64,000 nucleotides of DNA from positions 15,001 through 79,000 of the forward strand of contig NZ_JSZE01000005.1 of the NCBI RefSeq assembly GCF_000802365.1, written 5' to 3'. The notes below the pieces were generated by a model, which saw only the letters and a list, made by a program, of their open reading frames with translations, was not told the DNA's origin and made no database searches. A program made the translations under genes and the position numbers. Positions 13,587 to 47,065 of this stretch are shown piece by piece (position 1 is the first letter of the stretch; every line of letters begins with the position of its first letter). Source of the DNA: Xanthomonas cannabis pv. cannabis (GTDB lineage: Bacteria > Pseudomonadota > Gammaproteobacteria > Xanthomonadales > Xanthomonadaceae).

Positions 13587-14093
13587 AGCGACTGACAACG
13601 CTGCTGCGCAGCCGCCAGGCGGGTCCGGCCGGTGCCCGGAATCGGCATGATCTGCTCGTACTCCGGTTCCTGCGCGCCGTCCGCTCCCACCTGACCACCG
13701 TTCACCAGGTCTAGCCCCTCTCGGCCCTGGGGTCGGGATCGGTGTGTTGGCGGCTGCCGGAGGCGCGCAGCATTGGCTTGCAGTGGCTGACCGGTGTGGT
13801 TTTGGGCTGCGAGGCGACATCGCATGGCCATCTTGCCGCCTCTCGTCGCCCGCGCAGCAGCTGATCGCAGGGCAGACCGCGGTGCAAGACCCTGGCGTGG
13901 CTGCGCTGACACGGCATGATCCGGGTATTGGCCCGCGCCGTTGCCGTCTCTGCTTGCGCCCAACCACACGCTACAGGCCGCTTGCGGGTCGCAGCCCGGC
14001 ACATGAGGTGTGCTTGCTTCATGCCTGACTCAGACAGTCAGGGCACAATGCGCGATCTTTTTCGCTCAGCCTTCATCCGGCCACCACGAATCC
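13587..14093. other. intergenic, nothing recognised
   Basis: Short open frames on both strands show no family resemblance, and no strong hairpin, repeat or promoter stands out. It probably contains the promoter of the downstream glycosyltransferase pair. Confidence 0.4.
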
Positions 14094-44639: not shown

Positions 44640-45045
44640 TTGTTCGCGGTGGCGATCGCGTTGCCGCGAACGAGCAGCGGCATCGGCGCATGGACCAGCG
44701 CACACGCCGATGCTGAGCACGCCGTACATACCGCCTGACAAATGCTTGCTACGTTTGTCCGCGTGCTTCATCTGCAATGCCTGACATCAGGTCATCGCCG
44801 GACACCGACCGTCGCATTCAAATGCAATACTGCCTTGCGGTCGTTACACAACTGCATTCTCTTTCGACCACCCGAAAGATAATCTGAAAAATAATTGCAT
44901 AAAGTGCTTGCGCAATGAAAAGGACGCAGGTAGTGTTCGCGCCCTCAGCAGGTACGCCTGCACTTTCACCGACTCGACCTCATGCCCCTGCTCCATTCCG
45001 CCACATTCAATCGACTGCCCAGCGCACACCGCGCGGCGTCGTTTG

Positions 45046-45170
45046 TGCGCACGAAGAAAGCAGTCGTGCGCATCACCCGATTCGACTGATGTCCTGACGA
45101 GGAGATCGGTCACCCGATCTCCGAGGCAAGCGAACGCCCTCGGATGCTGCATCCGGGGGCGTTTTCGTTT
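45046..45170 (+). ncRNA. candidate structured small RNA ending in a terminator
   Basis: Three strong hairpins follow one another. The first is TGCGCACGA / TCGTGCGCA (45046-45072, 9 bp). The second is GGAGATCGG / CCGATCTCC (45101-45122, 9 bp, loop TCAC). The third is an ACGCCC..GGGCGT terminator. No coding frame spans them. The 5' end and any promoter are not defined; a larger transcript starting near 44900 is possible. I do not recognise it as a known Xanthomonas RNA. Confidence 0.5.
45132..45170 (+). terminator. Rho-independent terminator of the candidate small RNA
   Basis: AACGCCC-T-CGGATG, loop CTG, CATCCG-G-GGGCGTT, then TTCGTTT. The stem is about 13 bp with one mismatch and a U-rich tail. 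Confidence 0.75.
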
Positions 45171-45443
45171 GCGCGTTCGCATCGCATCGTGTGGATGACC
45201 TTCCAGGCACCCGGGCATGGATTGCCCGACAACATGGACGTTGCATGCGGTCAGGCGCGAAAGCGCTGTGCCCAGGTGCCGGGCACGGGTCGCGCGTGGT
45301 CATGCACATACAAGATTACCGTTTGAATAAAACGGTGATCAGAAACACTGCGGAAGAGATTCAGCGGCCTGGAGTTTATTCCAGCTGGTGCGCGCGGCGA
45401 TGCCGTGGCGTATACCGAACGCTTCCTCAATGTTTCTCGTTAT

Positions 45444-45511
45444 GGGTATCGGCTCCTGGTGGAGCGGCGGCGTAATCCGCAGGCCTGGTTCGATTCCGGA
45501 ATACTCACCAC
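45444..45511 (+). tRNA. compact tRNA-like element with encoded CCA (degenerate or specialised)
   Basis: It folds as a short tRNA. Acceptor GGGTATC (45444-45450) pairs with AATACTC (45501-45507) at six of seven positions, one of them G-U. D-stem CTCC/GGAG has a 4-nt loop. Anticodon-type stem GGCGG/CCGCC (5 bp) has a 6-nt loop, CGTAAT, instead of 7. The T-loop is canonical TTCGATT, and the end is ACCA. At 68 nt it is shorter than a standard tRNA, lacks U33 in the expected place and has no assignable anticodon. Either a decayed tRNA or a tRNA-mimic RNA. Confidence 0.55.
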
Positions 45512-45583
45512 TGGATAGCTCAGTTGGGTAGAGCAACAGATTTCTAATCTGTCTGTCGCGGGTTCGAATCCCGCTCCATGCAT
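45510..45583 (+). tRNA. tRNA-Arg(UCU)-like element with defective acceptor stem
   Basis: D-arm GCTCAGTTGGGTAGAGC, anticodon arm ACAGA-TTTCTAA-TCTGT (anticodon TCT) and T-arm GCGGG-TTCGAAT-CCCGC are all canonical. The acceptor strands CACTGGA and TCCATGC pair at only four of seven positions, and no CCA follows (the next bases are ATGACC). The 5' end overlaps the CCA of the preceding tRNA-like element by 2 nt. An automatic tool would probably call tRNA-Arg; I doubt that it is a normally aminoacylated tRNA. Confidence 0.65.
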
Positions 45584-45603
45584 GACCTTCTCGGTCATCT
45601 CTC

Positions 45604-45620
45604 GGGACGCAAGTCCCTTT
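45604..45620 (+). terminator. weak terminator-like hairpin after the tRNA-like pair
   Basis: GGGAC-GCAA-GTCCC then TTT, preceded by a second hairpin ATGACC-TTCTC-GGTCAT (45583-45599). It could end or process the tRNA-like transcript. The U-tract is short. Confidence 0.4.
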
Positions 45621-45940
45621 ACGGAAACGCCCATGCCGCAGGCACACAGGCAACCCATCGTCTGACTGCCTGCAGCAGCGGCGCCATTGCCGGGCCCTCG
45701 CCCTGAACGCGCACGCTGCACCGTTCGCAACCGCTGCGCACTACATCGCACAGCGCCCGCAACGCGCATGCAGGCGCCAATAGCGCATCGCGCCCCGCAC
45801 GGCCGCCGTCACCGGCGTTTCCACCTTTCAACGCCGCGTTGCATCGGCACACGTCTCGCCAGCAGTCCGATCTGGGCGGCGCGACGGCTATATCCCCCCC
45901 GGATCGGACCACCAGAGCCAAATGTAAAAGGAGTAGTGCC
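45621..45940. other. leader region of the slipin-rtcB operon
   Basis: No gene recognised between the tRNA-like pair and the slipin start. No convincing promoter was found; the slipin gene may be read from a promoter upstream of the tRNA-like elements. Confidence 0.4.
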
Positions 45941-47065
45941 ATGTTCTGGACCAAGAGGGTCGTGATCGGTGACGGCGAGCGCGGCCTGGTGTATCGCAAC
46001 CGTCGGTTCGAGCGCGTGCTCGTCCCCGGTGTCTATCGCCTGTTCGACCCACTGGGTCGCAGCGAGGTCATCGTCCACGCCATCAGCCAGGGCGCCTATG
46101 TCGGCCGCGACGCGGAGATGCTGATCGACACGCTCGGCAGCACCCTGCCGCAGCACTTCGTGCTGGCCGATATCGGGACCGCGCAGGTCGGCCTGCTGAT
46201 CCGCAACGGCAAGCTTGAGGAGGTGCTGCCACCGGGCACGCGCGCGCTGTACTGGCGTGGCCCGGCAGCGATCGAAGTGCAGACCCTGCCGCTGGGCGAT
46301 GGGCTGCAGGTGCCTACCGATGTGCAGCACAGGATGCGTCAGCTCGGCACGCTGTCGCGGGTGGCAGTGTGCATGGACGTGCCCGCCGAGTCGCAAGGGC
46401 TGGTGTTTGTGGACGGCAAGCTGGTCGCGCCATTCGGACCGGGGGCATACGCGTTCTGGAATTTCCAGAAGAACATCGCCACCGAGGTGATCGATCTGCG
46501 CGTGCAGTCGGTCGAGGTCTCCGGGCAGGAGCTGTTGACGCGCGACAAGGTGTCGTTGCGGGTCAACCTGGCCGCCAGCATGCGCGTCACCGATGCCGTG
46601 GCGATGCGCACGCGCGTGGCCAAGGCGGGCGATTATCTGTACCGCGAGTTGCAATACGGCTTGCGCCGTGCGGTATCGGCCAAGACGCTGGACGAGTTGC
46701 TGGGCGACAAGGCCTGCCTGGATGCGGATATCTTCGGTTATGTGCGTGGCAGCATGAGCGGCTTCGGTATCGAGGTGCTGGGCGTCGGCGTCAAGGACGT
46801 GATCCTGCCGGGCGAAATGCGCGAGATCCTCAATGCGGTCGTGCAGGCGGAGAAGCAGGCGCAGGCCAACGTCATCCGCCGGCGCGAAGAGGCCAACGCC
46901 ACGCGTTCGTTGCTCAACACCGCCAAGCTGATCGAAGACAGCCCGGTGCTGATGCGTTTGAAGGAACTGGAGGCGCTGGAAAAGGTCACCGAAAAGATCG
47001 ACAAGCTCACCGTGTTCAGCGGCCTGGATGGCGTGCTGAAGCAATTGGTGACGATCAGGCAATGA
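45941..47065 (+). CDS. slipin family protein (SPFH/band-7 domain)
   Basis: A 374-aa SPFH protein. The band-7 domain occupies about residues 155-320 (VDVPAESQG is replaced here by MDVPAESQGLVF, then KDKVSLRVNLAA-like RDKVSLRVNLAASM), and a coiled coil (ILNAVVQAEKQAQANVIRRR) follows. No clear N-terminal membrane hairpin is seen, unlike classic slipins, so membrane attachment is uncertain. The ATG at 45941 has a good ribosome-binding site (AAAGGAG). rtcB follows after 54 bp; slipin-RtcB pairing recurs in proteobacteria. Confidence 0.88.
   Translation: MFWTKRVVIGDGERGLVYRNRRFERVLVPGVYRLFDPLGRSEVIVHAISQGAYVGRDAEMLIDTLGSTLPQHFVLADIGTAQVGLLIRNGKLEEVLPPGTRALYWRGPAAIEVQTLPLGDGLQVPTDVQHRMRQLGTLSRVAVCMDVPAESQGLVFVDGKLVAPFGPGAYAFWNFQKNIATEVIDLRVQSVEVSGQELLTRDKVSLRVNLAASMRVTDAVAMRTRVAKAGDYLYRELQYGLRRAVSAKTLDELLGDKACLDADIFGYVRGSMSGFGIEVLGVGVKDVILPGEMREILNAVVQAEKQAQANVIRRREEANATRSLLNTAKLIEDSPVLMRLKELEALEKVTEKIDKLTVFSGLDGVLKQLVTIRQ

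What the first reader, a model, noticed from the sequence alone, without database searches (positions are those of the whole stretch)
45444..45583. Back-to-back tRNA-like elements just upstream of slipin-rtcB
A 68-nt tRNA-shaped element with encoded CCA overlaps by 2 nt a tRNA-Arg(UCU)-like element whose acceptor stem is broken and lacks CCA. They precede slipin and rtcB. In Salmonella, Y-RNA-like RNAs with tRNA-mimic domains are encoded beside rtcBA, and RtcR systems are thought to sense tRNA fragments. A dedicated tRNA-mimic feeding an RtcB repair cassette is therefore plausible. The simpler alternative is decayed tRNA genes.
Basis: partly seen in the sequence, partly recalled or inferred. 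Interest (0 to 1): 0.75.

Follow-up and report, generated by a model that had tools for sequence, protein, structure and literature searches.

The report
Slipin-linked RNA with two tRNA mimics
The two odd tRNA-like pieces are not broken tRNA genes but parts of a large, conserved folded RNA, for which I found no earlier description, that sits in front of a slipin gene (often with the RNA-repair ligase RtcB) in many bacteria, and one of its tRNA mimics carries different anticodons in different relatives.

Summary
Confirmed, and much larger than reported. E1 (45444-45510, encoded CCA) and E2 (45509-45581) overlap by 2 nt. A covariance model of the pair, built from 68 of these sequences, hits 77 of 80 slipin loci; the 3 misses are contig ends. 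Pairing is kept by compensatory change (22 of 38 pairs, 0/500 shuffles). Flanks covary from about 45206 to 45907, so E1/E2 are domains of a roughly 700-nt structured RNA ending at the slipin ribosome-binding site. Only tRNA reached an Rfam gathering score in it. E2's body is nearly invariant but its anticodon is hypervariable: 25 triplets in 62 loops. E2 keeps 4 acceptor pairs and rarely a placed CCA, so decoding is unlikely. The RNA tracks slipin rather than rtcB: found with slipin where rtcB is not adjacent; not found at 7 rtcB loci without slipin (loci picked for lacking it). Paired T-arms precede slipin in 24 of 28 testable loci sampled outside the family; probable reduced forms occur in E. 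coli and Clostridia. Decay and Y-RNA readings fail. Best mechanism, inferred: a tRNA-mimicking RNA partner of slipin (and RtcB) under translation stress.

The parts
44908..44936 (+). promoter-like TTGCGC-N17-TAGTGT (inferred)
   Evidence: conserved block TTGCA..TAATGT in a 52-sequence upstream alignment; the sigma-70 consensus scan found no site
44982..45089 (+). candidate 35-aa leader ORF
   Evidence: an ORF of 34-36 aa ending just before the hairpin in 27 of 31 Xanthomonas loci searched, several of them the same sequence held twice; substitution pattern does not prove coding (15 synonymous, 53 nonsynonymous codon differences over 7 sequences)
45101..45173 (+). hairpin plus terminator-like stem (45132-45143/45153-45164) and T-run: candidate attenuator
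   Evidence: pattern in 41 of 52 loci; 45085-45185, fold z -6.2; single match in own genome
45206..45293 (+). 5' hairpins of the RNA (for example 45266-45272/45282-45288)
   Evidence: double changes above all 100 shuffles; helices were picked by searching the same 52-row alignment and some exclude one another
45315..45339 (+). P1 hairpin
   Evidence: 9 of 11 pairs with double changes, 110 cells against a shuffled maximum of 51
45342..45438 (+). upstream core domain: P2 45342-45348/45431-45438, P3 45355-45360/45419-45424, P4 45369-45384, conserved GGTGCGCGCGGC..GCGTAT
   Evidence: covariance model R2
45444..45510 (+). E1: tRNA-like domain, 6-pair acceptor, encoded CCA, short anticodon hairpin
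   Evidence: 6 of 6 acceptor pairs covary; junction holds CCA in 50 of 68; 4-nt loop in 35 of 68, 7-nt in 9
45509..45581 (+). E2: tRNA-like domain, nearly invariant D and T arms, 4-pair acceptor, hypervariable anticodon (TCT here)
   Evidence: (57.5 bits)
45582..45617 (+). hairpins D1 (45582-45598) and D2 (45604-45617)
45623..45822 (+). 3' domain closed by long-range helix D3 (45623-45632 with 45812-45822), with inner helices D4
   Evidence: 10 of 11 D3 pairs with double changes, 38 cells against a shuffled maximum of 10; complementary arms listed
45867..45907 (+). hairpin just before the slipin ribosome-binding site
   Evidence: 449 of 473 cells paired, 5 of 7 pairs with double changes
45941..47065 (+). 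slipin (SPFH/Band 7) gene, the constant partner of the RNA
   Evidence: Pfam Band_7 1.2e-31 at residues 148-318; hydrophobicity peaks at 1.26 over 19 residues
47120..48343 (+). rtcB RNA ligase, frequent but not constant neighbour
   Evidence: Pfam RtcB 5.8e-123

Best explanation
SHOWN by comparison: 45206-45907 encodes a conserved structured RNA that contains two overlapping tRNA-like domains and lies directly before slipin. E1 has a 6-pair acceptor and, in most rows, CCA, but a short hairpin (four bases in about half) in place of an anticodon loop. E2 has nearly invariant elbow arms (D, T), a truncated acceptor and mostly a seven-base anticodon-type loop whose triplet changes freely. INFERRED: the RNA is made as the leader of the slipin(-rtcB) transcript and works as a ribonucleoprotein partner of slipin. 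Its tRNA-like elbows are bound by factors that recognise tRNA shape (processing, modification or cleavage enzymes). The exposed, fast-changing anticodon hairpin of E2 serves as bait or decoy for agents that cut or bind anticodons, while RtcB reseals cut RNA. Expression is raised by translation stress or tRNA damage: through RtcR/sigma-54 where these occur (Citrobacter), and perhaps through the leader-ORF/terminator in Xanthomonadaceae. I put the existence of the RNA class at about 0.95, a role in the slipin/RNA-repair response at about 0.6, and bait or decoy through the variable anticodon at about 0.25.
For: Pair model R1 hits 77 of 80 slipin loci (67 of these loci gave sequences to the model, so they match by construction; the fact shown is that the pair is there). 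Covariation within the pair; flanking helices; long-range helix. E2 triplet: 25 kinds in 62 seven-base loops (of 68), with T33 in 45 and A37 in 55 of 62; all five anticodon-stem pairs show compensatory change. No strong covarying partner for the E2 loop elsewhere in the RNA. Linkage to slipin: L173 and L174 have RNA and slipin without rtcB in the 9-11 kb fetched; seven rtcB loci without slipin (L177-L181, L239, L240) show no R1 match upstream of rtcB. Outside the family, T-arm pairs precede slipin in 10 of 14 class loci and 14 of 14 phylum loci with enough sequence. Stress link: rtcR lies divergent to the Citrobacter counterpart; TGGCAYN7GC in 8 of 33 non-family loci, expected 1.1 by base shuffling (one of the 8, L187, lies where it is probably chance); in Anabaena a silent tRNA array, rtcB and a slipin gene are under the repressor TrcR (PMC10272220, passages). 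Several relatives lie inside tRNA gene arrays.
Against: No transcript was examined. Some loci keep the upstream domain but have lost E1 and most of E2 (L176) or E1 (L067, 74 bits), so the mimics are dispensable in places. 4 of 14 class loci lack a T-arm pair and L194 has no T-arm. The seven slipin-less rtcB loci were fetched because one search showed no strong R1 match there, so they are not a blind control; L177 has a 54-bit R1 match elsewhere and L179 a 20-bit R2 match. E. coli and Citrobacter forms are found by neither model beyond a T-arm. No protein binding was tested. The variable anticodon could be drift in a loop kept only for its fold: position 36 is T in 38 of 62 and C (G-starting codons) in 1. 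Family loci show no excess of sigma-54 motifs (2 of 77, expected 3.4).
Confidence: 0.5

Rival explanations
1. Cis-acting leader: the RNA is a 5'-UTR switch. Binding or cleavage of its tRNA-like domains (RNase P, tRNase Z, an anticodon nuclease, the ribosome) changes transcription or translation of slipin-rtcB. It need not act in trans.
For: Same strand, ends at a covarying hairpin before the slipin ribosome-binding site; lies directly upstream of slipin in the loci examined, even where rtcB lies upstream of both (L200, L203, L205, L207); leader ORF and terminator-like stem further upstream.
Against: About 700 nt of ornate structure is large for a switch; I saw no alternative pairing that would mask the start site, though I did not search for one systematically; the anticodon loop has no strong covarying partner.
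Confidence: 0.3
2. Decayed tRNA genes, for example left by an integrated element.
For: Truncated E2 acceptor, no CCA in the window, ARAGORN calls nothing in the window.
Against: Same overlap and same truncated acceptor across many genera, 96.5% of cells paired with compensatory change; flanks covary.
Confidence: 0.01
3. A divergent Y RNA (YrlA type) of an RNA-repair operon.
For: Sub-threshold YrlA matches at the E1/E2 junction in 3 of 6 loci (34.0, 26.6, 25.5 bits; gathering 69) and in L137 (26.7), and none listed at the ordinary tRNA junctions of L200 and L137. Salmonella has Y RNAs in its rtcBA operon (PMC7790460, passages).
Against: No TROVE protein in this genome; YrlA's acceptor-like hairpin is not formed in L210; no YrlA match for the window up to E 5.
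Confidence: 0.04
4. Functional but unusual tRNAs supplying extra decoding under stress, like the Anabaena array.
For: Relatives embedded in tRNA arrays; some members score as full tRNAs (L198 66 bits).
Against: In the family E2 pairs at the outer three acceptor positions in only 7-10 of 57 rows; CCA stands at the canonical place after E2 in 3 of 68; no fixed identity; E1 has a seven-base loop in 9 of 68.
Confidence: 0.1

Closest known systems
YrlA (bacterial Y RNA, RF02553) of rsr-yrlBA-rtcBA operons
   Same: tRNA-mimicking noncoding RNA encoded beside an RNA-repair ligase; T-arm followed by D-arm at the E1/E2 junction
   Different: two tandem direct tRNA-like domains in a far larger RNA; no acceptor-like hairpin in the alignment inspected; slipin instead of Ro60; below the Rfam threshold
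GOLLD and ROOL large ornate RNAs
   Same: large, highly structured, near tRNA arrays in some members; tRNAs are sometimes in the GOLLD linker (PMC12286853, passages)
   Different: no Rfam match; chromosomal slipin locus; no slipin match in the phage collection; tRNA-like domains integral in the family
OLE RNA with OapA
   Same: RNA of several hundred nt encoded next to its protein partner and linked to stress (PMC12265935, passages)
   Different: OLE is in Gram-positives and its partner is a transmembrane protein; the window slipin shows no clear transmembrane stretch
Anabaena trn operon (L-array) with TrcR
   Same: tRNA array, rtcB and a slipin gene repressed by TrcR and induced by translation inhibitors (PMC10272220, PMC9938897; passages)
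   Different: array of tRNA genes, not one structured RNA; array on a megaplasmid, rtcB on the chromosome

Membership tests
tRNA (RF00005) | covariance-model score above gathering | tested here: met
   E2 57.5 bits against 29; E1 of the window not listed above gathering
tRNA (RF00005) | complete 7-pair acceptor stem and 3' CCA for aminoacylation | tested here: not met
   E2 aligns at positions 4-67 only; outer acceptor pairs 8, 7, 10 of 57; canonical CCA 3 of 68
tRNA-Arg(UCU) | conserved anticodon and identity among orthologues | tested here: not met
   25 distinct triplets among 62 loops
YrlA / Y RNA | Rfam gathering score | tested here: not met
   best 34.0 bits against 69; none in the window
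YrlA / Y RNA | Ro60-type TROVE partner in the genome | tested here: not met
   0 matches in own genome; the control rang in Deinobacterium
YrlA / Y RNA | permuted module with acceptor-like hairpin between T-arm and D-arm | tested here: not met
   hairpin pairs not formed in the one alignment inspected (L210)
GOLLD / ROOL / OLE | Rfam gathering score | tested here: not met
   no match listed
GOLLD / ROOL / OLE | multimeric cage or dimer, protein partners | not testable with these tools
   needs biochemistry or cryo-EM
RtcR-controlled RNA-repair operon | RtcR regulator and sigma-54 promoter | tested here: not met
   no RtcR in own genome, no sigma-54 excess in the family; rtcR adjacent in Citrobacter L215

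The most novel reading that the evidence does not exclude
A new class of large noncoding RNA, spread over Pseudomonadota and reaching Clostridia, that is the RNA subunit of a slipin particle. It displays paired tRNA elbows and an evolving anticodon as a changeable bait for tRNA-attacking toxins or phage and host nucleases, with RtcB as the repair arm: a vault-like SPFH ribonucleoprotein of bacterial RNA repair.
Probability: 0.2. Interest if true: 0.96.

Novelty: categorically new. Interest (0 to 1): 0.88.

Why it matters
It adds a large, widespread structured RNA to a pathway (RtcB repair, bacterial slipins) whose substrates and partners are largely unknown, and it makes testable what these slipins do. 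A conserved RNA body carrying a nearly free-changing anticodon is a very unusual pattern of evolution and points to an arms race or to a recognition event indifferent to identity. A probable reduced counterpart lies upstream of a slipin gene whose region matches in 1,627 of 5,426 complete E. coli genomes (the query was mostly slipin), so a tractable host may exist.

Tried and rejected
Decay: rejected by conservation and covariation. Y RNA: rejected by threshold, missing hairpin and missing TROVE. Kissing or pseudoknot of the E2 anticodon with another part of the RNA: a mutual-information scan gave no strong partner (best outside the loop itself 0.29, against about 0.5-1.1 for the leading helix pairs). 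R1 as a taxonomic detector: set aside, because it also hits what I take to be ordinary tandem tRNA genes (not inspected one by one) up to about 102 bits; co-location with slipin, or scores of 112 bits and above (74 of 297 family genomes), were used instead. Two family loci (L067 74 bits, L114 88 bits) lie below that level and rest on position. Vault comparison of slipin: only a weak MVP_shoulder match in 1 of 46 proteins (E 0.15), and no structure could be predicted. My repeat pattern matched two or more times in 14 of 46 slipins, so the repeat idea is only a lead. A Xanthomonas anticodon listing by pattern printed nothing (pattern fault); the rows were used.

Rows dropped before counts: of 81 sequences (window plus 80 loci) my E2 pattern missed 8 (L063, L122, L127 cut by contig ends; L077, L091, L095, L101, L114 for sequence) and L124 was too short for my window; 72 were aligned and 70 kept at 95% identity. 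A1 holds 68 of these 70 (L067 and L137 left out), A2 52 of 70. L235 (contig end) was left out of upstream tests. The rtcB-without-slipin loci were chosen because R1 was weak or missing there: nine fetched, of which seven have no slipin, L176 has slipin with a remnant RNA, and L238 has slipin but only 189 nt of upstream sequence. Helices were chosen on the same alignments they were counted on.

Full report
Observation. The window is Xanthomonas-like by its nearest named relatives. E1 (45444-45510) ends in an encoded CCA; E2 begins at 45509, so the two overlap by 2 nt. E2 matches the tRNA model with 57.5 bits over positions 4-67 only, E1 is weak on its own, and ARAGORN finds no tRNA. The own genome holds no second copy of the region; the nearest matches are tRNA-Lys(ttt) and tRNA-Thr(tgt) at about 80%.

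Conservation. A scan of genome contigs with the slipin protein kept 80 loci of 165 found. ARAGORN already found overlapping tandem tRNA-like elements upstream of slipin in many of them. A covariance model of the pair (R1, from 68 sequences) hits 77 of 80; the three misses have at most 360 nt of upstream sequence. 67 of the 77 gave sequences to the model. On that alignment 96.5% of cells pair, 22 of 38 pairs show changes on both sides, and no shuffle of 500 reaches the observed values; slid structures give 35-47% paired. The E2 D arm, T arm and four acceptor pairs hardly vary; its anticodon stem covaries at all five pairs; the E1 acceptor covaries at all six.

The anticodon. Of 68 E2 loops 62 have seven bases, with 25 different triplets; T33 is kept in 45, A37 in 55 and A38 in 44 of 62. 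In Xanthomonas rows the triplets TCT, TGT, TCA, CGT and CTT occur on an almost identical body. E1 instead has short hairpin loops, four bases in 35 of 68 by folding the arm; the same folding gives seven bases in 43 of 68 for E2. The E2 outer acceptor positions pair in only 7-10 of 57 rows, CCA stands at its canonical place after E2 in 3 of 68, and the junction contains E1's CCA in 50 of 68. In the family neither element looks like a decoding tRNA.

A larger RNA. The flanks are conserved and covary: an upstream core with P1-P4, two hairpins after E2, a long-range helix joining 45623-45632 to 45812-45822 with many compensated forms, inner helices, and a hairpin just before the slipin ribosome-binding site. 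All 11 helices counted exceeded their 200 shuffles. More covarying hairpins lie at 45206-45293. The RNA therefore spans about 45206-45907. The helices were chosen on the alignments they were counted on, and column shuffles do not remove shared ancestry, so these counts are support, not probabilities; the slid-structure control, which keeps ancestry, was run for the E1-E2 pair only. In Rfam only tRNA reached its gathering score in the loci given; YrlA and others stayed below.

Partner. The RNA tracks slipin. G055 and G289 (L173, L174) have RNA and slipin with no rtcB in the 9-11 kb fetched. Nine rtcB loci where one search showed weak or no R1 were then fetched: seven (L177-L181, L239, L240) have no slipin and no R1 match upstream of rtcB; L176 has slipin and the upstream domain but has lost E1 and most of E2; L238 has slipin but only 189 nt of upstream sequence. 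Because of that choice this is agreement, not a blind control. In a class sample 15 of 274 genomes have this slipin at E 1e-40; in a phylum sample 20 of 339 at E 1e-30; both counts include the own genome, and the second three more of the same family. Using a T-arm pattern, a pair stands upstream of slipin in 77 of 81 family loci, 10 of 14 class loci, 14 of 14 phylum loci and 2 of 5 plasmid-collection loci with enough sequence; at least one T-arm in 81/81, 13/14, 14/14 and 5/5. Controls: 0 of 5 slipin-less rtcB loci (of two more, one has a single T-arm), and no pair, with 74 showing any T-arm, in 1,955 random 800-base pieces of this window, which has no ordinary tRNA genes. The pattern cannot tell mimics from ordinary tRNA genes. 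L198 carries three tandem elements. Some relatives sit within tRNA arrays, for example rtcB, three tRNAs, RNA, slipin, then nine tRNAs in L200. Model R2 (upstream domain) confirms several distant members with lower scores and is rare in the class sample (3 of 369 with strict filters, two of them the own genome and a family member).

Named relatives. Photobacterium carries the pair (R1 111 bits) and Burkholderia multivorans a weaker form (79 bits) with slipin-rtcB; Citrobacter has rtcR, an RNA-like region, slipin and a nucleotidyltransferase; E. coli STEC639 has the same slipin pair without rtcR in the stretch shown; Subdoligranulum (Clostridia) keeps a GGTGCGC..GCGTATGCC core (R2 18.9 bits, E 0.017) and two T-arms. 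The E. coli region is in 1,627 of 5,426 complete genomes. The E. coli, Citrobacter and Subdoligranulum forms rest on position, T-arm and motif (inference).

Control of expression. A sigma-54-type motif occurs in 8 of 33 non-family loci (expected 1.1) but not above expectation in the family, and RtcR is absent from the own genome. In the family, a promoter-like block, a 34-36-aa ORF (27 of 31 Xanthomonas loci searched) and a terminator-like stem precede the RNA; a consensus promoter scan did not support the promoter. I read this as possible translation-coupled attenuation, unproven.

Mechanism. Shown by comparison: conserved fold, tRNA mimicry, linkage to slipin, free anticodon. Inferred: RNA partner of slipin, induced by translation stress or tRNA damage, with mimic domains engaging tRNA-recognising factors and RtcB as repair arm. 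The Anabaena regulon that joins a tRNA array, rtcB and slipin under TrcR (PMC10272220, passages) and the rtc-locus SPFH gene of Pseudomonas aeruginosa (PMC13086221, passages) support the functional theme. Slipin matches stomatin, QmcA and HflK in the PDB by profile; 5 of 46 members reach a hydrophobicity of 1.6 over 19 residues, and the window protein peaks at 1.26, so a soluble form is possible. Structure prediction did not run.

Print check. Nine paper searches listed no title or abstract describing this RNA; the main text of PMC8632094 holds neither 'slipin' nor 'rtcB'. The library lacks most subscription papers, and two papers I recalled as relevant were not held. Rating the RNA as categorically new therefore rests on Rfam 15 and these searches.

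Noticed in passing
window 44982-45089 and 45101-45173: Conserved short ORF followed by a strong hairpin and a terminator-like stem before the RNA; possible leader-peptide attenuator, single match in the genome.
   Followed up: partly
L200, L202, L201, L137: Slipin-RNA loci (L202 slipin only) within or beside tRNA gene arrays, sometimes with rtcB in the same cluster.
   Followed up: partly
L215, L216 (Citrobacter, E. coli): Slipin paired with a nucleotidyltransferase-domain gene instead of rtcB; rtcR divergent in Citrobacter.
   Followed up: no
L020 (G010): A same-genus genome matches only the first 74 bases of the 45300-45940 query and keeps the leader ORF: a possible natural loss or replacement of the rest.
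   Followed up: no
L198 / L210: Three tandem tRNA-like elements (Ser, undetermined, Thr by ARAGORN) upstream of slipin-rtcB.
   Followed up: no
window 45941-47065: Slipin N-terminal part (1-147) shows repeated GLxxRNxxxxxVLxPG units before the SPFH domain; a vault-protein-like layout is an untested lead.
   Followed up: partly
window 13647-13716: Rfam sX9 Xanthomonas sRNA, 44.3 bits against gathering 44.
   Followed up: no
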